Source: Candidatus Methylacidiphilales bacterium (lineage in GTDB: Bacteria; Verrucomicrobiota; Verrucomicrobiia; Methylacidiphilales; CAZTYG01). Taken from it: 49,454 nucleotides of DNA. How positions within the stretch are numbered: the stretch's first letter is position 1; every line of letters begins with the position of its first letter. The notes beneath the pieces are model-generated. The model was given only the letters and a program-made list of their open reading frames with translations, was not told where the DNA came from and ran no database searches. Below are positions 31,725 through 41,796 of the stretch, piece after piece. The stretch lies in assembly GCA_033875315.1 (NCBI GenBank), contig JANRJG010000019.1:1-49454 (forward strand), given 5' to 3'. The position numbers and the translations under genes were made by a program.

Positions 31725-32786
31725 TCAAGCCGTCTGATGGGGGCGGCGACGGCGACGCCAGCCCTCCCCGGCGGCCAGCAACAACAGGACCGCCCCCGTG
31801 ATCCACGTCGAAGGTTCAGGCACCACGATCCCCGTGGACAGAGTGTTATCGATGTAGAAGTGCAAATCATTGAAATCATCGTCTGATCCCCCCCCCGTGC
31901 GGCGGGTGATGTCCTCGAAGGTGATGACGGATCCCGGGGAATTCGGGTCGGGAGCGAAGTTCGGATTGCTGGTGTTGCTTCCCACCGCATTTCCATTGTT
32001 GTTGCGTGTCGTGCCAAAAAAAGTGAATGCCTGGTCCAGACCCGTCCCTGCCCCTGCCGTGTCATTGCCCGGGTTTCCCTCGCTGACCGCAAAGAGCGGC
32101 CAGGCACTGGCCCCGGTTCCATCAAGGGCAAACGAGGTGAACGTGTTGTCTGCGGCGTCGTTCAGAAAGGCTTCTAATGAATTGTTGGGGATAATGAAAA
32201 AGGAATAAAACCGGCCGCCCTCCAAAGTCACCACATTGGTGTCGTTCGTGATGTCGTAGGTGTCGCCGTTTCCCCGGTCATGGTTGCGGGTTTGGTCATT
32301 ATTTGGAGTGGGAGTGGTATACGCATCATCCGTGTCCCGGGTCACTTGCTTGGCCCCGCTCGGCACGGTAAAGATCGCCGCTTGGTCGACGAAGACCACT
32401 TGGGCCGTGGAGAGCGCCTCGATGGCCCAGGCTTGTTTTTCGGCCACCGTGTCATAGGGCAAGGCCGCGAGAGTGCTGGTGACTTCGAAATAGCCGAATG
32501 AAAAAGTGTAGGCTCCATCATCATACAGAAACGTCATGTTGATCGACTGGGGGCCGGTACCATTGATCTGGTACAAGCCGTAATTCACCTCGTTGAATGT
32601 CCCGCCCAGCGCGTTGTTCCCGTAAACATCGGTCAGCGTATTGCCGATGTCGTCATAAGCGGGGTTGGTCGAGTTGCTCCCGTAGAAGACCGTGTCTGCT
32701 GGCAGGTTCATCACCGATCCCCATAAAAGGGCAGCGGCGGCACAAACCAGTGACTTGCGAATGGGCCAGGTACAGAACAATTTCAT
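31725..32786 (-). CDS. PEP-CTERM sorted exoprotein with DUF4114-like domain
   Basis: This 353-residue protein has a signal peptide (IRKSLVCAAAALLWGSVM). A domain with TGGGSDDDFNDLHFYID near its end is the acidic signature seen in DUF4114 proteins. A textbook PEP-CTERM tail follows: VPEPSTW at 322-328, a hydrophobic helix, then GWRRRRR. Exosortases recognise this tail and cut it after membrane transit. The mature protein is rich in N, T, G and D, as expected for a surface protein. It is transcribed away from creBC, and its downstream partner is the TPR gene. Confidence 0.85.
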   Translation of the reverse strand: MKLFCTWPIRKSLVCAAAALLWGSVMNLPADTVFYGSNSTNPAYDDIGNTLTDVYGNNALGGTFNEVNYGLYQINGTGPQSINMTFLYDDGAYTFSFGYFEVTSTLAALPYDTVAEKQAWAIEALSTAQVVFVDQAAIFTVPSGAKQVTRDTDDAYTTPTPNNDQTRNHDRGNGDTYDITNDTNVVTLEGGRFYSFFIIPNNSLEAFLNDAADNTFTSFALDGTGASAWPLFAVSEGNPGNDTAGAGTGLDQAFTFFGTTRNNNGNAVGSNTSNPNFAPDPNSPGSVITFEDITRRTGGGSDDDFNDLHFYIDNTLSTGIVVPEPSTWITGAVLLLLAAGEGWRRRRRPHQTA

Positions 32787-32960: not shown

Positions 32961-33680
32961 ATGCCCCGACACATCCTCGTGGTCGAAGACGAACCGCTGA
33001 TCGCGGACAATATCCACTACGCCTTGGAAACCGAGGGTATGGTGGCCATTCCTTGTGCCACGCTTGGCGAAGCGGAAATGCACCTGCGGGAACAATCTTT
33101 TGATCTCATCGTCCTCGACGTCAACCTACCCGACGGCAACGGCTTTGATTTTTGCCGCGGCCTCCGAACCCGCCAGTCCACCCCGGTCATCTTCCTCACC
33201 GCACGGGCGGCAGAAATCGATCGCGTGGTGGGCCTGGAAATCGGCGGCGATGACTACCTGGTCAAACCCTTCAGTCCCCGGGAACTCACGGCCCGCATCA
33301 AGGCCGTTTTGCGCCGGGGTGGATCCGCTTCCCCATCTACATCCCAGTTGCCTCCTCCCCAGCAGAACACTCCAACTGCCAGCAATGGAAATTTCTCTAT
33401 CGATGAAGATCGCAAAGAGATTCTTTTATCCGGGGTTGCCTTGGGTTTATCGCGCTATGAGTTCCGTCTGCTCAAGGTTCTGGTCGAGCGTCCCGGGCGG
33501 ATCTTCAGCCGCGACGAATTGATGGACCGCGCCTGGGACGAGCCCGATTCCAGCACCGACCGCACCGTCGATGCCCACATCAAAAAAATCCGCTCCAAGA
33601 TCCGCGCCGCCGTCCCAGGCGCCGACCCCATCGAGACCCACCGCGGTTACGGCTATTCCCTCCGGCCCACCCCCCAATGA
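32961..33680 (+). CDS. creB: CreB-like OmpR-family response regulator
   Basis: The 239 residues have a receiver domain (VVEDE, Asp-53 in VLDVNLPD, VKPFSPREL) and a winged helix. Close resemblance to E. coli CreB is visible in PVIFLTAR, VGLEIGGDDYLVKPFSP, LSRYEFRLLKVL and THRGYGYSLR. A longer, proline- and serine-rich linker (about 125-145) separates the domains. It should bind the TTCA[T/C] repeats at 35275-35321. It overlaps creC by four bases (ATGA). Confidence 0.88.
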   Translation: MPRHILVVEDEPLIADNIHYALETEGMVAIPCATLGEAEMHLREQSFDLIVLDVNLPDGNGFDFCRGLRTRQSTPVIFLTARAAEIDRVVGLEIGGDDYLVKPFSPRELTARIKAVLRRGGSASPSTSQLPPPQQNTPTASNGNFSIDEDRKEILLSGVALGLSRYEFRLLKVLVERPGRIFSRDELMDRAWDEPDSSTDRTVDAHIKKIRSKIRAAVPGADPIETHRGYGYSLRPTPQ

Positions 33681-35107
33681 AAATCCGCACCGTGGTCTTT
33701 CTGGCCTACGCGCTGGTCTTCGGCCTGGCCTTTGCCTTCCTCCTCCGCTGGGTCATCGATGGGTTGCGTCCCCGCTACTTGGAAGCGGTGGAAGAATGCC
33801 TGGTCGACACTTCCGTGCTGGCCGCCGAATGGCTGGCCGGCGAGGCCCGGCCCGACGGCACCCTGCCGACGGAGGTGTTGGCCGGCACGTTCGCCCGGCT
33901 CAAAAACCGGCGATTTGAGGCCTGCATCTACGATCTGGTCAAAACCCGCGTCGATCTCGATTTCACCGTCACCGACCGGAACGGGATTGTTCTCTTCGAT
34001 TCCGGTGACTCGTCCCGCATCGGCCAGGACTTTGGCAACCGCTGGCGGGACATCCGCCTGACATTGAAGGGAACCTACGGTGCCCGCACGACCCGGCTGG
34101 TCGAGAATGATCCCACCACCTCCGTGCTCCATGTCGCCGCGCCCATCCGGCTCAAGGGCGAATTGATCGGGGTCGTCTCTGCCTACAAACCCTCCGACAA
34201 TGCCGACCAGTTCATTGCCGGGGCCGCCTGGAAGATCACCCAGGCCGGCTTCCTCGCCACCGCCGTGGTCGTCCTGACTTCGCTCCTGCTTTCTTTCTGG
34301 ATCAGCGCCCCTATCGAAAAACTCACCGCCTACGCCCGCGCCGTGCGCGATGGTGCCAAGCCCCCCAGGCCGCGCCTGGGATCGGCCCGGGAAATCCGCG
34401 CCCTCGGACAGGCCTTCGAGGAAATGCGCGACACCCTCGAGGGAAAAAACTACATCGAGAACTACATCCAGTCCCTGACCCACGAACTCAAAAGCCCCAT
34501 CACCTCGATCCGCGGCGCGGCGGAACTCATGGGCGAGGACATGGAACCGGGGCGCCGGCAAAAATTCGCCGAAAACATCCGCTCCGAGGCGGCCCGCATG
34601 GCCCAGATCGTCGACCGTCTGCTCGAATTGGCCTCTGTCGAATCGCGCAAGAGCCTGGGCCCAACCCACCCCTTGGACTTGGTGGAAATTCTGCGCGACG
34701 TCTTGGCTTCCGTACCCGGTCTCCAAGGCCTTGTCATCGACGCCCCTCTTCCCGACACCCTCGCCTTGCGGGGTGAACGTTTTCTGCTCCGGCAGGCGTT
34801 GGAAAACCTGCTCATCAATGCCATCGAGTTTTCCCCGTCCGGCGGGCGCATCCGCGTGGACGCCCAACGTGATTCCAAGCATGTGGTCGTGCGAATCGAG
34901 GACGAAGGCCCGGGCATTCCGGACTATGCCCAGGAGAAGATCTTTGAACGTTTCTTCTCCCTGCCGCGTCCCGGGACACAGAAGAAAAGTTCCGGCCTGG
35001 GTCTGCCCTTTGTCAAGTTGGTGGCCGAGTTGCACGGCGGCACTGTCACTGTGGCCAACCGTCCCGGCGGAGGCGGCACCCGCGCGGAGTTGACCCTCCC
35101 AACCTGA
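33677..35107 (+). CDS. creC: CreC-like sensor histidine kinase
   Basis: This 476-residue kinase (E. coli CreC has 474) carries CreC-specific stretches: LTLKGTYGART, EGKNYIENYI, LTHELKSPITSIRGAAEL with phosphoacceptor His-269, and IFERFFSLPRPGTQKKSSGL. Helices at about 7-27 and 185-210 bracket a periplasmic sensor part. A HAMP-like linker, HisKA and an ATPase domain (NLLINA, DEGPGIP) follow. CreC responds to carbon or fermentation state and envelope stress in enterics; here the signal is unknown. No creD is present. Its place is taken by the VIT/exosortase pair. Confidence 0.9.
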   Translation: MKIRTVVFLAYALVFGLAFAFLLRWVIDGLRPRYLEAVEECLVDTSVLAAEWLAGEARPDGTLPTEVLAGTFARLKNRRFEACIYDLVKTRVDLDFTVTDRNGIVLFDSGDSSRIGQDFGNRWRDIRLTLKGTYGARTTRLVENDPTTSVLHVAAPIRLKGELIGVVSAYKPSDNADQFIAGAAWKITQAGFLATAVVVLTSLLLSFWISAPIEKLTAYARAVRDGAKPPRPRLGSAREIRALGQAFEEMRDTLEGKNYIENYIQSLTHELKSPITSIRGAAELMGEDMEPGRRQKFAENIRSEAARMAQIVDRLLELASVESRKSLGPTHPLDLVEILRDVLASVPGLQGLVIDAPLPDTLALRGERFLLRQALENLLINAIEFSPSGGRIRVDAQRDSKHVVVRIEDEGPGIPDYAQEKIFERFFSLPRPGTQKKSSGLGLPFVKLVAELHGGTVTVANRPGGGGTRAELTLPT

Positions 35108-35119
35108 GCCACACGCTGC

Positions 35120-35254
35120 CCTTGGCAGCATCGTTCCGGTTCGGAGCCAGATCGCAGCCTTGAAATGGCGTTGGATGGTCCGGTCCTTGGTCGCCAGCAC
35201 CCGGTCGAGGAGATTGTAGACATCTTCACGCAGCTTGGAGGGGGCTGGCGGCAT
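35120..35254 (-). pseudogene. Probable relic of a Phd/YefM-like antitoxin gene
   Basis: From an ATG at 35254, with GGAGG nine bases upstream, the minus strand reads MPPAPSKLREDVYNLLDRVL. This looks like the first helix of a small antitoxin (SKLRxxxYxLLDxVLxTG). After about 22 residues the likeness stops, and the frame runs on, antisense, through creC with no stop of its own. No toxin gene adjoins. I read it as a broken antitoxin start left in the creC-VIT gap. Confidence 0.35.
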
Positions 35255-35274
35255 CCTTCAGCCTCCGGCGTTTC

Positions 35275-35321
35275 TTCATCAATTCATGATCTATTCATCC
35301 CCGGTTCATCATCGATTCACC
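35275..35321 (+). promoter_or_regulatory. Array of CreB-type direct repeats
   Basis: TTCAT or TTCAC begins at 35275, 35283, 35294, 35305 and 35316. The last four are exactly 11 bases apart (TTCATG, TTCATC, TTCATC, TTCACC). The E. coli CreB target is TTCAC-N6-TTCAC, which also has an 11-base period. The array ends 62 bases before the VIT gene ATG and directly follows creBC, so CreB control of the VIT-exosortase genes is the natural reading. Confidence 0.7.
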
Positions 35322-35383
35322 GGCGTGTTGCAGGGTCTTGGGCGTCAACCAAACCCCAACCCCGACACAAGCAAAGGAACCCG

Positions 35384-37402
35384 ATGAAAACACCCCGCCT
35401 CCTCCAAGCCATCCTATCCCTCCTGCTGCTGGCCTGGGCCGCCCTGCCGGCCCACGCCACCAACCACGACCCCGATGACCACACCCTCTCCCCCTACTTC
35501 TTCGTACACTCGAGCGGGAAAGGCACGGAGCAACTCCCGCTCAAGTCCACCCAGGTCGATGCCCGCGTCACCGGCGTCATCGCCGACGTCGTCGTCACCC
35601 AGGCCTACGAAAACACCGGCACCGTCCCCATCGAGGCCGAGTATGTCTTCCCCGGCTCGACCCGGGCCGCGGTTTATGCCCTGGAGATGCGCATCGGCGA
35701 CCGCCGCATCACCGCGGAGATCAAGGAAAAGGAGGAAGCACGCGCCGTCTATGAAACCGCCAAGAAGGAGGGCAAAAGCGCCTCGTTGCTCGAACAGGAA
35801 CGCCCCAACGTCTTCAAGATGAAGGTGGCCCACATCCTTCCCGGCGACCACATCGAGGTCGAACTCCGCTACACCGAGCTGCTCGTTCCGGAAAACCTGG
35901 TCTACCAATTCGTCTACCCCACGGTGGTCGGTCCCCGCTATGCGGGCAACACCGGCGAGCGCGACCCCAAGGAACACCAGTGGGTGGCCAGTCCCTACTT
36001 CAAACAGGGCCAGCCCAGCCCGGCCGCCTTCACCTTCAACCTGGAAATCAATGGCGGCATGCCCCTGCAGGATGTGCGTTCCACCACCCACAAGATGAAA
36101 ACGGCCTTCAACGGCCCGGAACTGGTCGACCTCCAGCTCGATCCGGCCGAGGCCCACCCCGCCGACCGTGACATCATCGTGGAATACCGCCTGGCCGGCA
36201 ACAAGGTCCAGACCGGCCTCATCCTCCACCAGGGAGAGAAGGAAAACTTTTTCCTCGCCATGGTCCAGCCTCCGGTGCGTCCGCAGGACATGGAAATCCC
36301 CGCCCGTGACTTGGTCTTCATCATCGATGTGTCAGGCTCGATGGGAGGCTTCCCCCTCGACACGACCCGGGAGCTGATGAAGAACCTGCTCGGCAAACTG
36401 CGTCCGATCGACACCTTCAACATCCTCTTCTTCTCCGGCGGTTCGTTCGTGCTTTCCGAACAATCGCTGGCGGCCACCCCGGATAACCTGGAAAAGGCCC
36501 GGCAGGCCATGGAACAGATGAATGCCGGTGGCGGTACCGAATTGCTACCCGCCTTGCAGCAGGGGCTGGCCCTGCCCCGGGCGGAGAACATCTCCCGCAG
36601 CTTCCTCGTCATCACCGATGGCTATGTCATGGTGGAGCCCGAGGCCTTCGACCTCATCCGCAAAAATCTCAACCGGGCCAACCTCTACGCTTTCGGCATC
36701 GGGTCCTCGGTCAACCGCCACCTCATCGAAGGCATGGCCCGCGTCGGCCAGGGCGAACCCTTCATCGTCACCGAGCCCGGCGAGGCAGCGGCCACAGCCC
36801 GTCGATTTGCCGAGTATGTCTCCCGTCCGCTCCTGACTGACATCCAGGTCGCCTTGATGGATTTCCACGCCTACGACATCGAACCGCTCCGGCAACCCGA
36901 CCTGCTGGCCGAACGTCCTCTGGTCGTTTTTGGCAAATGGCGCGGCAATCCGTCCGGCGTCATCCGGGTATCCGGCAAGACCGGCCGTGGCTTGTTCCAA
37001 CAAGACCTTTCCGTGGCCGAAGCCGCCTCCACGCTCGACCACCCCGCCCTGGCCCAACTGTGGGCGCGCAGCCGAATCGCCCAGCTGGGAGATTACAACA
37101 ACCTGCAGAAGACCGATGATCGCGTGAAGGAAATCACCCGCCTCGGCTTGGAATACCACCTGTTGACCGCCTACACCTCGTTTGTGGCCGTGGACAAGAT
37201 CGTCCGCAATCCATCGGCCGGCCTGCAAAACGTCAAGCAACCCCTCCCTCTGCCCAAGGGCGTTTCCAATGCCGCGGTGGGCGAAGTGGGAACCACGCCG
37301 GAGCCGGGAGAGTGGATCTTGCTGGGGCTGGCTTCCGCCCTGCTGGCACTTTGGTCCTGGAACCGCCGTCGCCTAAACGCACACTCGGAGACCGTAGCGT
37401 GA
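35384..37402 (+). CDS. VIT/von Willebrand A protein with PEP-CTERM-like tail
   Basis: This 672-residue exported protein (signal MKTPRLLQAILSLLLLAWAA, cut near AHA) has a VIT domain at about 45-175 (VVTQAYENTGTVPIEAEYVF, Y-ETAKKEGKSASLLEQERPN). A von Willebrand A domain at about 308-490 carries the metal site DVSGSMGG (Asp-315). The C-terminus has TPEPGEW (638-644), a hydrophobic helix and NRRR. The same VIT-vWA plan is the single target of dedicated sortases in marine proteobacteria, where the tail is LPxTG. Here the tail is of exosortase type, and the next gene, overlapping by four bases, is an exosortase. AAAGGA precedes the ATG. Confidence 0.9.
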   Translation: MKTPRLLQAILSLLLLAWAALPAHATNHDPDDHTLSPYFFVHSSGKGTEQLPLKSTQVDARVTGVIADVVVTQAYENTGTVPIEAEYVFPGSTRAAVYALEMRIGDRRITAEIKEKEEARAVYETAKKEGKSASLLEQERPNVFKMKVAHILPGDHIEVELRYTELLVPENLVYQFVYPTVVGPRYAGNTGERDPKEHQWVASPYFKQGQPSPAAFTFNLEINGGMPLQDVRSTTHKMKTAFNGPELVDLQLDPAEAHPADRDIIVEYRLAGNKVQTGLILHQGEKENFFLAMVQPPVRPQDMEIPARDLVFIIDVSGSMGGFPLDTTRELMKNLLGKLRPIDTFNILFFSGGSFVLSEQSLAATPDNLEKARQAMEQMNAGGGTELLPALQQGLALPRAENISRSFLVITDGYVMVEPEAFDLIRKNLNRANLYAFGIGSSVNRHLIEGMARVGQGEPFIVTEPGEAAATARRFAEYVSRPLLTDIQVALMDFHAYDIEPLRQPDLLAERPLVVFGKWRGNPSGVIRVSGKTGRGLFQQDLSVAEAASTLDHPALAQLWARSRIAQLGDYNNLQKTDDRVKEITRLGLEYHLLTAYTSFVAVDKIVRNPSAGLQNVKQPLPLPKGVSNAAVGEVGTTPEPGEWILLGLASALLALWSWNRRRLNAHSETVA

Positions 37403-38814
37403 AGGAGGCAGGCCCCCGTCCTCCATTTGGAAACGCGGTTCTTCTGTCCCTCCCTTGGGGACCGCTTCCGGCCCCCGCCTTCCAACTCCCCCGTTGGGGG
37501 GTGTTGGCCGGCTTGGTTCTGGTTTTCTGGCCCTTGTTCGCTTGGTGGACAGGCCGCAGTGCGGGGGCCGCGGAAGGGGGGTGGCCCCTGGCCGCCCTGA
37601 TCGGGATCGTCTTCCTAACTCGATGGAAGACTTTTCTCCAACCGGTGGATGAGCGCACACTGGTCCGGCTGTGCGCCGGCCTGGCAGTGATGCTCCCGTT
37701 TCTGGCCGAGGGCAGCCTGCCTCCCCTGGCGAGAGGGCTGGCGGCGGCGGGTTTTGCCGCCGTGCTCTGGCACGGAACCGGGGCACCTCCCGCCCTCTGC
37801 CTGATGCCCTTTCTCCTCCTGCCGGTGGCCGACACGGCCGACTTCTATCTCGGTTATCCCTTGCGCGCTTTCGTGGCCGAAGGTTCAGCCTTGCTGCTGC
37901 GGACGCTGGGGGTTTATGTCTCGGTTTCTGGAACCGGATTGGTGCATGCGGGACGTGAGGTATGGGTCGATGCCCCATGCAGTGGACTCCGGATGCTTTG
38001 GTTCGGAGGCTGGATGACCCTGGTGGCCGCGACCCTGGCCCGGCTGCATTCCCTGGCTCTCGTCTGGTTGGGTCTCGCTGCCCTGGTTCTTTTGATCGCG
38101 CTCAACGTTCTCCGGGCCACACTGCTTTTTTTCCCGGAAAGCGGCCTGTGTTCGCTGCCTGCCTGGAGCCACGGGGCCATCGGGGCCGCTTGTTTTCTCG
38201 CTGCAGGCGGACTGATTCTTCTCCTGGCCCAGAGACTGCAATCGTTTCGCATCCCGCCGGCTGGAGAAACACCCCCGAACGCCATCAAACCCGCGCGCCG
38301 GGTGGTGCTCTTCTTCCCGGTGCTGTGCCTTTTCGGCTTGGGACTGACTTTTCTGCCGCATCCCGGTCCAAAGCCCGATGCGATCACCTCCACAGGATTT
38401 CCGGGCTGGCCTTCCAGCCTCGAAGGCCGGGCTCTTGAATCCGTGCCCCTTTCCGCCAAAGAAGCCGCTTTCCTGCGCGATTTTCCCGGGCACACCGCGG
38501 CGTTCCAAGATGAAGACGGACGTTGGATCGTGCGTTGGGTCACCGCTCCGACCCGCCGCCTTCACCCCGCGCGGCACTGCTTCGCCGGTTCCGGCCACCA
38601 GATCCAACCGGAGGGGATCGTTCGCGACGGATGGGAAACGCTCTGGGGAAGCTTTCAAGCCAGCAAAGAGGGTCAAACATGGACCGTGCGGGAGCGGATC
38701 GGTGATGCCGCGGGTAATAATTGGACCGATGTGTCGTCGTGGTATTGGGCCGCCGTCCTCGGTCGCACCCAGGGTCCTTGGTGGGTCTACACACGGATCA
38801 CCCAGGATAGCTGA
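37399..38814 (+). CDS. Exosortase fused to an EpsI-like C-terminal domain
   Basis: From the GTG at 37399, overlapping the VIT stop (GTGA), this is 471 residues with about eight helices in the first 280. The exosortase triad is visible: Cys-194 in DAPCSGLRML, Arg-239 in LNVLRATLLF, and His-258 in PAWSHGAIGA. After a helix at about 300-320, the last 150 residues include LHPARHCFAGSGHQI, which recalls the HxPxxCYxxxGW region of EpsI (DUF3485), an exosortase partner usually fused or adjacent. It should cut the tail of the VIT protein after export. The subtype is not assigned. Longer in-frame starts lie inside the VIT gene. Confidence 0.85.
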   Translation: MKEAGPRPPFGNAVLLSLPWGPLPAPAFQLPRWGVLAGLVLVFWPLFAWWTGRSAGAAEGGWPLAALIGIVFLTRWKTFLQPVDERTLVRLCAGLAVMLPFLAEGSLPPLARGLAAAGFAAVLWHGTGAPPALCLMPFLLLPVADTADFYLGYPLRAFVAEGSALLLRTLGVYVSVSGTGLVHAGREVWVDAPCSGLRMLWFGGWMTLVAATLARLHSLALVWLGLAALVLLIALNVLRATLLFFPESGLCSLPAWSHGAIGAACFLAAGGLILLLAQRLQSFRIPPAGETPPNAIKPARRVVLFFPVLCLFGLGLTFLPHPGPKPDAITSTGFPGWPSSLEGRALESVPLSAKEAAFLRDFPGHTAAFQDEDGRWIVRWVTAPTRRLHPARHCFAGSGHQIQPEGIVRDGWETLWGSFQASKEGQTWTVRERIGDAAGNNWTDVSSWYWAAVLGRTQGPWWVYTRITQDS

Positions 38815-38943: not shown

Positions 38944-39087
38944 CAGCTCTAGAGCATTTTTGTTTAATCTGCTCATCGTTTTCGTACTCTTTCCCATTCT
39001 CGTTCTCTCAGATATGGAGAGAACGAGCACGAGATCGAGTAAGAGAAACAAAAAAAAACGCTGACGCTCGGGAGAAATGCTAGCTAT
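38944..39087. repeat. Possible MITE-like element with internal 11-bp hairpin
   Basis: The stretch starts AGCTCTAGAGCATTT and ends AAATGCTAGCT, an imperfect inverted pair. TCTAGAGCATTTT is shared with the IS630-like end at the window start. Inside, CTCGTTCTCTC (38999-39009) and GAGAGAACGAG (39017-39027) form a perfect 11-base stem with a 7-base loop, followed by GAGCACGAGATCGAG-type repetition and an A-run. It overlaps the last codon and stop of the prc gene. The 269-base gap between exosortase and prc holds only this and repeat copy 3. Confidence 0.4.
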
Positions 39088-41285
39088 GAGCCGCTCTGCT
39101 GGGCGGCGACTTTCACCGCGCTGCCGTTCATGCCGATGAAATCCTGCAGTATACGGAGGGTTTCCTGGAGGTGGAGATCGCCGGCATAAAGTTCGTTGCC
39201 GGTGATCGGCTTGTCTTTGGGTGTGACGGCGTCTTCGTCCTCATCCGTGGCCACGGCATTGGGGTTGATCGGTTCGGTGCCGGCCGAGACCTTGATGCCC
39301 TCGTCTTTGTCGAATCCGTAACGGGTCACTTTGGGGCAGTTTTGGGCCAATTCCTTGATCTTGGCCTTGCGCTGTTCTTGGCGGGTTTTGTCCTCCAAGC
39401 GCTCCTTCTGGCGCTCTTTCTCATTGAGTGACACCGAAGGATTCTCGATGCGGGTGCGGAGTCGGGCGATTTCTTTGTTTAATTCGGCAAATTCAGGATT
39501 CTGGGCCAGGCGGTCTTTCGAACGTTTGATCAATTGGGGCAGGTCCCCGGCGATATCCGTGGAAACCTTGAATTTCTCGCCTTCGATTTCGTCCCAGGGA
39601 AGCGCATGCGGGAGTTTTTCCTCGCCGAGGTCGAGGTAGTCATTGAGCGAGGGCAGGTTGATGTCGGGCACGACGCCGCGCACCTGGGTGGAGTGGCCGT
39701 TGGGGAGGTAGAACTTCTGGATGGTGAGCTTGATCGCCCCGGCCTCAGGGGGTTTGCCGGTGATGCCGGCCAGATAACGTCCGATTTCCTGCACCGTCTG
39801 GACCGTGCCCTTGCCGTGGGTGCTCTGGTCGCCGATGATCAGGGCCCGCCCGTAATTCTGCAGTGCCCCCGCCGTGATCTCCGAGGCCGAGGCGCTCATC
39901 TTGTTGGTCAGCACAAAGAGAGGGCCGGTGTAAAAGGCCCCCTTGTCGAAATCGGAAAGCACGTGTTTTTTGCCGCGGGAGTCCTTGACCTGGACGACCG
40001 GGCCCTGGTCGATGAAGAGGCCGGTCAGGTCGACGGCCTCACTCAGCAGGCCGCCCCCATTGTTGCGCAGATCCAGGACCAGGCCGTCGACCTTGGATTC
40101 CTGCAGCTTGCCGATGAGCCGCTTGACGTCGGCGGTGGTGTTGGCCGCGGTCGATCCGTCGCTGCGCTCGATGTCCCCGTAAAAGGAGGGCAGTTGGATG
40201 ACCCCCAGCTTCATGGCCGGAGTGTCCTTGATCGGGGGAATCTCGATCAGCTCGGCCTTGGCACGTTGGTTGGTGATCTTGATCTCGTCGCGCTTGAGGG
40301 CGACCTCCGACCTCATGGAGGGATCGGTCGCGTCGGCGGGTATGACCTTCAAGCGCACCTCGCTTCCTTTGGGGCCGCGGATGAGTTTGACCGCATTGCG
40401 CAGACGCATGTCGACGATGTCGACATATTCGCCCGGACCCTGGGCCACGGCGGTGATGCGGTCGTTGACTTTCAATCGCTTGTCCAGGTCGGCCGGACCC
40501 CCGGGCATGATTTCACGGATGGTGCAGTAGCCCTCGGGTGAAACCGTCAGCACGGCGCCGATGCCGAAGAGGGAGTTTTTCATCCCGATGACAAAATCTT
40601 CCAACGTATCGGGGCTGAGGTATTGGCTGTGGGGATCGTAAACCCGGGCCAGTGCGGTGAGGTAGGTCTCCACCACTTCTTCCGAGTCCATTTCCTCGAT
40701 GTTTTTCTTCAGCCGGTCGTAGCGTTTTTGGATGCGGGCCAGCGGCGATTCGGTGGTTTTTTTGCCTTCATAGGCCAGTTTTTCCGATAGGACATCGTTT
40801 TTCAGCCGGCGTTCCCAGAGCACGTCGGCCTCGGCCGCATCCTTGGGCCAATTGCTCTTGCTGCGGTCCGGGTTGTAAGCTTCCGCGCTGTTGAAATCGA
40901 AGGGCTGTTTGAGACGCACGGCCACCTGGGCCATGCGCTCGTTGAAGCGTTTTTCGAAGATCTGGAAAATCTCCAGCGAAGCGGTGATCTCCCCGCGCTT
41001 GAGGTCGCCCCCGAGGGTTGGTCCAAATTTTTGGCGGATTTCCTCTGCGTCCGACTGGAGGAAAAAAAGCCGGTTGTAATCGAGGTCCTTCATGAAGGTG
41101 TCGATCCACTCCAAAGAAACCTGGTCGTCAATCGGGCGGCGGGCGAAGTGTTCTTCCTGGAGGAAACGGGCGATGTAGAAAGCCACCTGCCGGTATTTCG
41201 GGTCGATCGGACCCAGCTCGGCGCAAAGGGGGCGGACCTGGCCAACCAACAGGAGAAGCAGGAGCACCCAACGGAAGCATTTCAT
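39084..41285 (-). CDS. prc: Tail-specific (C-terminal processing) protease, Prc-like
   Basis: The 733 residues start with a signal peptide (MKCFRWVLLLLLLVGQVRPL). The Prc plan follows: an N-terminal helical domain, a PDZ domain at about 235-330 (FGIGAVLTVSPEGYCTIREI, MPGGPADLDKRLKVNDRI), the S41 protease core with the catalytic serine in NKMSASASEITAG and lysine in THGKGTVQT, and a C-terminal DUF3340-like region rich in charged coiled coil. It trims or degrades periplasmic proteins from their C-termini. The ATG at 41285 begins the signal peptide. The gene stands alone on this strand, 85 bases from the next. Confidence 0.92.
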   Translation of the reverse strand: MKCFRWVLLLLLLVGQVRPLCAELGPIDPKYRQVAFYIARFLQEEHFARRPIDDQVSLEWIDTFMKDLDYNRLFFLQSDAEEIRQKFGPTLGGDLKRGEITASLEIFQIFEKRFNERMAQVAVRLKQPFDFNSAEAYNPDRSKSNWPKDAAEADVLWERRLKNDVLSEKLAYEGKKTTESPLARIQKRYDRLKKNIEEMDSEEVVETYLTALARVYDPHSQYLSPDTLEDFVIGMKNSLFGIGAVLTVSPEGYCTIREIMPGGPADLDKRLKVNDRITAVAQGPGEYVDIVDMRLRNAVKLIRGPKGSEVRLKVIPADATDPSMRSEVALKRDEIKITNQRAKAELIEIPPIKDTPAMKLGVIQLPSFYGDIERSDGSTAANTTADVKRLIGKLQESKVDGLVLDLRNNGGGLLSEAVDLTGLFIDQGPVVQVKDSRGKKHVLSDFDKGAFYTGPLFVLTNKMSASASEITAGALQNYGRALIIGDQSTHGKGTVQTVQEIGRYLAGITGKPPEAGAIKLTIQKFYLPNGHSTQVRGVVPDINLPSLNDYLDLGEEKLPHALPWDEIEGEKFKVSTDIAGDLPQLIKRSKDRLAQNPEFAELNKEIARLRTRIENPSVSLNEKERQKERLEDKTRQEQRKAKIKELAQNCPKVTRYGFDKDEGIKVSAGTEPINPNAVATDEDEDAVTPKDKPITGNELYAGDLHLQETLRILQDFIGMNGSAVKVAAQQSGS

Positions 41286-41370
41286 GGGAAACGACACGCG
41301 TAACAACTTACCTGCTAAACGGGGAAAAGTCACATCAGTTTCTGGGCGCCTGATTGTGCGGGTCCCGCCT

Positions 41371-41796
41371 TCACCCCTTGCACCCGCAACCCGAGCCACA
41401 TCCACCCTGGTTGTCGCAGGCCAGTTCTTCTTCGGTGGGCAGACGCCCCAGTTCGAAGGTCTTGCTGATCAGCTTGTTGACCTCGTCCTGGATGCCGTTC
41501 ATCGATTGCTGGGCCTCCAAGAAGGCCAAAGCCACCGGGTTCTGGACCAGGAGGGTGCGTTGGCGCTCAAAATCGGCAAAATCCTCGTCGCTGATTTCCT
41601 GTCCGGCGTGCTGGCGGGACTGGAGCAGGCGGCCCTTTTCGGTCACATGCCGGTATTGGGTTTGGGCTCCTTCGTCGACCAGGAAGCGTTCGACATCCTT
41701 GCGCAGTTCGAGGAAGGCCGGTTGGTTGACGATCAATTCGCAGAGTTCGCGGGTTTTGTCGCGGATGGCGGCTTCGTCGATGGCGGGCTGGATCAT
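41371..41796 (-). CDS. YlbF-family protein with cysteine-rich tail
   Basis: This 141-residue, mainly helical protein matches the YlbF/YmcA (DUF964) family: IRDKTRELCELIVNQPAFLE, DFERQRTLLVQNPVALAFLE and VNKLISKTFEL. In Bacillus these proteins form a complex that affects RNA processing and binds iron-sulphur clusters. The last 16 residues carry C-x5-C-x3-C-x-C (ACDNQGGCGSGCGCKG), a likely metal or cluster site. ATG 41796 is preferred over a TTG at 41814. It diverges from the ABC genes. Confidence 0.75.
   Translation of the reverse strand: MIQPAIDEAAIRDKTRELCELIVNQPAFLELRKDVERFLVDEGAQTQYRHVTEKGRLLQSRQHAGQEISDEDFADFERQRTLLVQNPVALAFLEAQQSMNGIQDEVNKLISKTFELGRLPTEEELACDNQGGCGSGCGCKG

What the first reader, a model, noticed from the sequence alone, without database searches (positions are those of the whole stretch)
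32961..38814. Self-contained dedicated exosortase system: CreBC, VIT-vWA target and exosortase
Four genes in a row read as regulator, sensor, single substrate and processing enzyme. The VIT-vWA protein ends in TPEPGEW, a helix and NRRR, and its stop overlaps the exosortase start (GTGA). In marine proteobacteria a VIT-vWA protein with an LPxTG tail sits with its own sortase and a two-component system (the proteobacterial dedicated sortase system, PdsR/PdsS with TIGR03788-type targets). Here the same logic appears with a different enzyme class and a CreBC-type regulator in place of PdsRS. I know of XrtN systems with VIT proteins, but not of this CreBC-linked form.
Basis: partly seen in the sequence, partly recalled or inferred. 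Interest (0 to 1): 0.88.

Follow-up and report, generated by a model that had tools for sequence, protein, structure and literature searches.

The report
CreB-controlled VIT-vWA surface protein and exosortase
A bacterium of the Verrucomicrobiota keeps one predicted surface protein next to the membrane enzyme thought to process it, and the DNA in front of the pair carries the known binding site of the CreB envelope-stress regulator; the same wiring recurs in many related bacteria and in Proteobacteria, which gives both partners a testable shared function.

Summary
In detail: CreB (32961-33680), CreC (33677-35107), a VIT-vWA protein with a PEP-CTERM tail (35384-37402) and an exosortase (37399-38814, GTGA overlap).

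Beyond it, four half-sites TTCA[T/C] in exact 11-bp phase (35283-35320) precede the VIT gene. This matches the published CreB site TTCACN6TTCAC. It is the only such array in 49 kb, and no other matches overlap in the whole genome. Upstream of VIT genes at related loci the tag occurs 71 times against 0.15 expected, all on the coding strand and almost only with the 6-base spacer, even where creBC lie elsewhere. All 16 of 388 phylum genomes with a strong XrtQ-type hit carry CreC, against 44 of 372 others.

The architecture is not unique to this window. Contiguous CreB-CreC-VIT-exosortase recurs in 11 other loci, including Akkermansia and proteobacteria whose exosortase is the named family XrtQ. 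The VIT/PEP-CTERM/exosortase pairing in Verrucomicrobium was published in 2011. I found no paper on the CreBC link.

"Self-contained, single substrate" is not shown: the genome has four other exosortases and about 25 PEP-CTERM proteins. The window exosortase scores below the XrtQ cut-off. Verdict: new variant of a known kind, with a new, testable regulon.

The parts
32961..33680 (+). creB, response regulator (receiver + winged helix)
   Evidence: NF008296 CreB 287.2 bits over cut-off 273; Pfam Response_reg, Trans_reg_C
33677..35107 (+). creC, sensor histidine kinase, overlapping creB by 4 bases
   Evidence: NF008312 CreC 521.8 bits over cut-off 356, positions 1-473/477; the only CreC in the genome over cut-off
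35283..35320 (+). candidate CreB operator: four TTCA[TC] half-sites at 35283, 35294, 35305, 35316 in 11-bp phase (cre/blr tag TTCAY-N6-TTCAY)
   Evidence: 3 overlapping matches against 0.29 expected; only 11-bp-phased run in the window; the only overlapping matches in the 3.15 Mb genome; conserved at related loci
35384..37402 (+). VIT-vWA protein, 672 aa, with signal peptide (35384-35458), VIT, vWA with MIDAS DVSGS
   Evidence: Pfam VIT and VWA; TIGR03788 420 bits, below cut-off 551.65; homologous to ITIH4, ITIH1 and PARP4 chains
37295..37399 (+). C-terminal sorting tail TPEPGEW - hydrophobic helix - NRRR
   Evidence: sequence; P639 and P641 of PEP invariant and E640 nearly invariant in the 30-sequence alignment; tails of 91 loci
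37399..38814 (+). exosortase, GTG start overlapping the VIT stop (GTGA), 471 aa; membrane core with Cys/Arg/His and a C-terminal region (from about 38296) that is a separate gene in some relatives
   Evidence: Pfam EpsH 5.2e-16; XrtQ 100.6 bits, below 270; C193, R238, H257 invariant, numbered from 37402; split form in L042, L043, L045, L050, L053

Best explanation
This is a CreBC-controlled exosortase cassette, dedicated by adjacency. CreC senses an envelope or cell-wall condition and phosphorylates CreB. CreB binds the tandem TTCA[TC]-N6 repeats at 35283-35320 and turns on the two-gene unit VIT-xrt. The VIT-vWA protein is exported by Sec and held in the inner membrane by its PEP-helix-Arg tail. 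The co-translated exosortase (Cys/Arg/His site) cuts it at or near the PEP motif and probably transfers it to a cell-envelope or surface acceptor, where it acts as a metal-dependent adhesive or scaffold protein. Supported by sequence statistics and comparative genomics: gene content, operator conservation, co-occurrence, target-enzyme adjacency. Inferred: the signal sensed, CreB binding, cleavage, acceptor and surface role.
For: CreB and CreC over cut-off. The operator matches the published cre/blr tag TTCACN6TTCAC (PMC4689548; PMC3660660) as four phased half-sites, the only such array in window and genome. At 83 de-duplicated VIT loci the 450 bp upstream hold 62 forward and 0 reverse tags with spacer 6, at most 2 forward for any other spacer 0-15; before de-duplication 71 against 0.15 from shuffles, 1.83/kb against 0.019/kb elsewhere. 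Where the unit begins with creD or creB the tags sit there instead (L047, L050, L052, L121; L054, L140). creD, a known CreB target, carries the same tag in about half of the genomes with creD, a positive control. One CreC in each of 51 of 68 genomes searched; tag and CreC presence associate, Fisher p=3.6e-6. 16 of 16 phylum genomes with a strong XrtQ-type hit have CreC against 44 of 372 others, p=1.6e-14. CreC lies in the same ~17 kb locus in 22 cases. The VIT gene lies directly upstream of the exosortase in nearly all loci, with a PEP-type tail in most.
Against: No experiment shows CreB binding or tail cleavage. Pseudomonas loci (L111, L126, L136, L142) have VIT-XrtQ without a recognisable tag; the three of them tested do have CreC. 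One genome (L096) has tags but no CreC was found in its draft assembly. The associations are partly inherited: only 3-6 phylogenetically independent contrasts exist, too few for a significant tree-aware test. Four other exosortases in the genome could also process the tail.
Confidence: 0.8

Rival explanations
1. The four genes are neighbours by chance or by general operon drift; CreBC regulates other things and the VIT-exosortase pair is constitutively expressed.
For: creBC is not adjacent in most VIT-Xrt loci. Many CreC genomes (44) have no strong XrtQ-type hit.
Against: Tag enrichment upstream of VIT is about 100-fold over the rest of the loci, strand- and spacer-specific. 22 of about 50 CreC-bearing loci hold the single CreC within 17 kb (a naive binomial that treats loci as independent gives 5e-39).
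Confidence: 0.06
2. The VIT tail is processed by one of the other exosortases (C15, C41, C3) together with the ~25 ordinary PEP-CTERM proteins, and the neighbouring exosortase serves several substrates, including the divergent PEP-CTERM protein at 31725-32786.
For: Tail is PEP-type like the others; several exosortases in the genome; a PEP-CTERM gene lies 174 bp from creB.
Against: VIT and exosortase genes are overlapping or adjacent across at least five phyla. The other targets end in [VI]PEP[SG] with shorter tails and their exosortases lie in EPS-type clusters. The 31725 gene is not conserved at related loci.
Confidence: 0.1
3. The exosortase homologue does not cut; it serves as an export or insertion chaperone, or as a membrane anchor partner, for the VIT protein.
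For: No solved structure or biochemical test for this subfamily. Some relatives have tails without a strict PEP (PES, PEA, TPGP).
Against: Cys, Arg and His of the exosortase site are invariant and a PE[PSA] motif is kept in most targets.
Confidence: 0.06

Closest known systems
Exosortase Q (XrtQ, NCBIfam NF012182) loci of Pseudomonas, Variovorax, Rhodocyclaceae and Saezia
   Same: VIT-vWA target with PEP tail directly upstream of the exosortase; CreB-CreC nearby in several; cre tag upstream of VIT in most non-Pseudomonas members
   Different: Window exosortase is only 100.6 bits against the 270 cut-off; it lies in Verrucomicrobiota
VIT-vWA protein with PEP-CTERM and cognate exosortase in Verrucomicrobium spinosum (PMC3237569, 2011)
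   Same: Same protein family, same tail type, same enzyme class, same phylum
   Different: The passages read name neither CreBC nor an operator. Verrucomicrobium loci in our set (L110, L112) have no creBC in the fetched stretch but carry four tags each
Proteobacterial dedicated sortase system (TIGR03788 target, TIGR03784 sortase, TIGR03785/TIGR03787 two-component system)
   Same: Logic: two-component system, VIT-vWA target, own sorting enzyme; homologous target (TIGR03788 420 bits)
   Different: LPXTG and sortase replaced by PEP-CTERM and exosortase; CreBC instead of PdsRS; target below the TIGR03788 cut-off
XrtN and its VIT target (TIGR04476/TIGR04477)
   Same: VIT target plus dedicated exosortase; a CreD-CreBC-linked version with an XrtN-like target exists in L047/L050/L052
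   Different: Window exosortase 44.6 bits against 200; window target is the smaller TIGR03788-like protein without a TIGR04477 match
CreBC/BlrAB-CreD regulon
   Same: CreB, CreC and the cre/blr tag TTCACN6TTCAC (PMC4689548, PMC3660660)
   Different: Targets named in the passages read are creD and beta-lactamase genes; here the tagged unit is VIT-exosortase. creD of this genome lies on another contig and has no tag

Membership tests
CreBC two-component system | Response regulator over the curated CreB cut-off | tested here: met
   287.2 bits against 273
CreBC two-component system | Sensor kinase over the curated CreC cut-off, full length including the sensor part | tested here: met
   521.8 bits against 356, profile positions 1-473/477
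CreBC two-component system | cre/blr tag TTCAC-N6-TTCAC in the target promoter | tested here: met
   Three overlapping TTCAY-N6-TTCAY at 35283-35320; relaxed form: three of the four half-sites are TTCAT rather than TTCAC
CreBC two-component system | CreB binds the tag and activates the target | not testable with these tools
   Needs gel shift and expression data
PEP-CTERM/exosortase system | Target with N-terminal signal peptide and C-terminal PEP, transmembrane helix, basic cluster | tested here: met
   Sequence of the VIT protein; however the tail did not appear among the PF07589 matches of the genome search
PEP-CTERM/exosortase system | Exosortase with catalytic Cys, Arg, His | tested here: met
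   EpsH Pfam match; C193, R238, H257 invariant
PEP-CTERM/exosortase system | Tail cleavage by the exosortase | not testable with these tools
   Needs mass spectrometry of mutant and wild type
Exosortase Q (XrtQ) | Score over the NF012182 cut-off of 270 | tested here: not met
   100.6 bits; proteobacterial relatives score 326-401
Exosortases N, O, T | Score over the respective cut-offs (200, 250, 250) | tested here: not met
   44.6, 58.0, 84.4 bits
Proteobacterial dedicated sortase system | Target over the TIGR03788 cut-off with LPXTG tail | tested here: not met
   420 against 551.65; tail TPEPGEW
Proteobacterial dedicated sortase system | PdsR/PdsS over TIGR03787/TIGR03785 cut-offs | tested here: not met
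   142.8 against 335.7; 123.8 against 612.2
Dedicated (one enzyme, one target) sorting system | Only one target for this enzyme in the genome | tested here: inconclusive
   One VIT protein, but four other exosortases and about 25 PEP-CTERM matches

The most novel reading that the evidence does not exclude
A conserved function of CreBC across Verrucomicrobiota and part of the Proteobacteria is to switch on, through phased TTCA[TC]-N6 arrays, an exosortase-processed VIT-vWA surface protein: a stress-induced, sorted envelope protein, with the exosortase pair as the core and, in this genome, perhaps the only CreB target.
Probability: 0.6. Interest if true: 0.75.

Novelty: new variant of a known kind. 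Interest (0 to 1): 0.62.

Why it matters
CreBC is known mainly from beta-lactam response and creD, whose role is unclear; exosortases are widespread but little is shown about what they do. A conserved CreB operator in front of a VIT-vWA/exosortase pair ties the two together. It predicts when the surface protein is made (CreC-activating envelope stress) and gives a simple genetic handle, since tag, regulator, target and enzyme can each be removed. The system also occurs in organisms that can be cultured (loci from Akkermansia, Variovorax, Verrucomicrobium, Pelagicoccus). It also shows the same VIT-vWA family being sorted by three unrelated enzymes (sortase, rhombosortase, exosortase; PMC3237569), in at least two of these systems beside a two-component regulator.

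Tried and rejected
The first genome-contig scan, with the window exosortase alone, found nothing, and a protein search of 60 order-level relatives found only the window itself; a family model and then an alignment were needed. The exosortase tree does not place the window protein: it is a long branch without starred support, so no subtype is claimed from it. The VIT tree puts the window target between verrucomicrobial and proteobacterial CreBC-type targets, also without a starred set. The tree-aware test of tag against CreC had too few independent pairs. The idea that the neighbouring Prc protease (39084-41405) or the divergent PEP-CTERM gene belongs to the system was dropped: neither is conserved at related loci. 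An apparent VIT-exosortase fusion in L079 looks like a frameshift: the frame loses VIT homology before the tail. The C-terminal region of the exosortase matches no Pfam family, so 'EpsI-like' is only a description. Paper searches for XrtQ/XrtN or for exosortase with CreC returned nothing relevant. Structure prediction was not run because it would not have decided between the explanations.
Full report
OBSERVATION. CreB and CreC are over NCBI's curated cut-offs (287.2 of 273; 521.8 of 356) and the rival dedicated-sortase regulators are far below theirs. The third gene encodes a VIT-vWA protein with a signal peptide, a MIDAS motif (DVSGS) and the tail TPEPGEW-helix-NRRR; the exosortase starts at GTG 37399, overlapping the VIT stop as GTGA. 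The Cys, Arg and His expected of an exosortase are present and invariant across 14 relatives. The target is homologous to inter-alpha-trypsin inhibitor heavy chains and PARP4.

WHERE IT IS. The window is one contig of a 3.15 Mb, 95.65% complete genome. The phylum is Verrucomicrobiota, inferred from named relatives and the group searches, not stated by a tool for this genome. No other genome of its family was sampled, and in its order (62 genomes) only weak XrtQ-type hits of at most 30 bits were found apart from the window. The genome has one CreC over cut-off, one VIT protein, four other exosortase-family proteins (one, on C12, is XrtZ over cut-off) and 25 PEP-CTERM matches, 22 of them over cut-off. 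So 'self-contained' holds for gene adjacency but not as a genome-wide statement.

CONSERVATION OF THE ARRANGEMENT. A family search of 388 phylum genomes and a scan of named genomes with an alignment gave about 100 loci. In nearly all of them the VIT gene lies directly upstream of the exosortase. CreC lies in the same stretch in 22. Counting a creC-VIT gap under 700 bp, CreB-CreC-VIT-Xrt is contiguous in 11 (L054, L089, L095, L114, L115, L125, L139, L140, L141, L145, L146), among them an Akkermansia, two Pelagicoccus, a Moraxellaceae, a Rhodocyclaceae and Saezia. L047, L050 and L052 have CreD - large XrtN-like VIT target - exosortase - separate C-terminal domain - CreB - CreC. The four proteobacterial exosortases scanned are the named family XrtQ (326-401 bits, cut-off 270). 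The window exosortase scores 100.6 and is therefore a divergent relative, not a member by the curated rule.

THE OPERATOR. CreB's published site is TTCAC-N6-TTCAC (PMC4689548; PMC3660660). The pattern TTCAY-N6-TTCAY occurs three times in the window against 0.29 expected, all overlapping at 35283-35320, 64-101 bases before the VIT start. There are four half-sites in 11-bp phase; all other 219 half-sites in the window stand alone. Genome-wide there are 23 matches, and only these three overlap. The other 20 are about what chance gives, scaling the shuffle expectation of the window to the genome (about 18).

I then looked at VIT loci elsewhere. In the 450 bases before the VIT homology there are 71 tags against 0.15 in shuffles, a density of 1.83 per kb against 0.019 in the rest of the loci, all on the coding strand. 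After removal of three duplicates (83 loci) there are 62 forward tags with spacer 6 and at most 2 for any other spacer from 0 to 15. The spacer bases themselves vary between loci. Where the unit begins with creD or creB the tags are found there, and creD genes elsewhere in these genomes carry the same tag in about half of the full-length cases, a positive control. Tags are present at many loci whose creBC lie elsewhere, which argues that the regulatory link, not gene proximity, is conserved.

CO-OCCURRENCE. 16 of 16 phylum genomes with a strong XrtQ-type hit (at least 100 bits) carry CreC, against 44 of the other 372 (p = 1.6e-14). In 68 genomes with VIT-exosortase loci, 51 have exactly one CreC over cut-off and 17 none. 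Across the 68 loci classified, tag and CreC presence associate: 34 with both, 1 tag without CreC, 16 CreC without tag, 17 neither; p = 3.6e-6. With a looser three-half-site definition, set after seeing the near-misses, the counts are 42, 1, 8, 17. These p-values treat genomes as independent, which they are not; the tree-aware test had only 3-6 contrasts and could not reach significance. Loci without CreC are mainly Melainabacteria/Cyanobacteria, Armatimonadota and others with a different VIT type, and only one of the 28 loci with that VIT type has a tag. Exceptions: Pseudomonas loci with CreC but no recognisable tag, and L096 with tags but no CreC in its draft assembly.

MECHANISM. Most likely: an envelope condition activates CreC; CreB~P binds the phased repeats and switches on VIT-xrt; the exported VIT-vWA protein is held by its tail, cut by the neighbouring exosortase and moved to an envelope or surface acceptor. 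In P. aeruginosa CreBC is activated by loss of PBP4 (PMC2654508), which makes cell-wall stress the first signal to try. Binding, cleavage, acceptor and function are inferred.

KNOWN OR NEW. The pairing of VIT-vWA, PEP-CTERM and exosortase in Verrucomicrobium spinosum, and the swap of tails among sortase, rhombosortase and exosortase in this protein family, were published in 2011 (PMC3237569). XrtQ is a named NCBI family, but I could not read its description text, so its curators may already note the VIT or CreBC context. In the open-access library I found no paper on XrtQ, or on an exosortase with CreC. Subscription papers are mostly not held, so a prior report cannot be excluded. I rate it a new variant of a known kind: a divergent XrtQ-like cassette whose CreBC link and operator appear unreported.

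Noticed in passing
L065 4684-6135 (-) and 6212-7045 (-), contig C12 of the window's genome: A second exosortase with an adjacent likely target: XrtZ (NF050190, 557.5 bits over cut-off 475) beside a 277-aa secreted protein with tail VPAAPVPPQAALGLFALAFALRGRLYRTA (no PEP).
   Followed up: partly
L047, L050, L052 (same genus, another class of the phylum): Operon CreD - 870-aa XrtN-type VIT target with PEP tail - exosortase - separate C-terminal domain - CreB - CreC, with cre tags upstream of creD.
   Followed up: partly
L075-L078, L080, L084, L088, L099, L100, L106, L132: Cyanobacterial/Melainabacterial VIT-exosortase pairs whose tails read PES or PEA instead of PEP; the genomes tested lack CreC and the loci lack tags.
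   Followed up: partly
L081 and L101, end of the VIT gene: Tail motif TPGP in place of PEP although tags and exosortase are present.
   Followed up: no
window 31725-32786 (-): Divergent PEP-CTERM protein (weak DUF4114 match, tail VPEPSTW...RRRRR) 174 bp from creB; not conserved at related loci, no cre tag between them. Possible additional exosortase substrate.
   Followed up: partly
window 39084-41405 (-): Tail-specific protease (Prc/Tsp family) convergent with the exosortase; no homologue found near VIT-exosortase pairs elsewhere.
   Followed up: yes
L111, L126, L136, L142 (Pseudomonas group): VIT-XrtQ pairs without a recognisable cre tag; CreC confirmed elsewhere in the genome for L111, L126 and L136 (L142 not tested).
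   Followed up: partly
L079 1-2814 (Riflebacteria contig): VIT and exosortase in one open frame; most likely a frameshift that removes the VIT stop and tail rather than a true fusion.
   Followed up: yes
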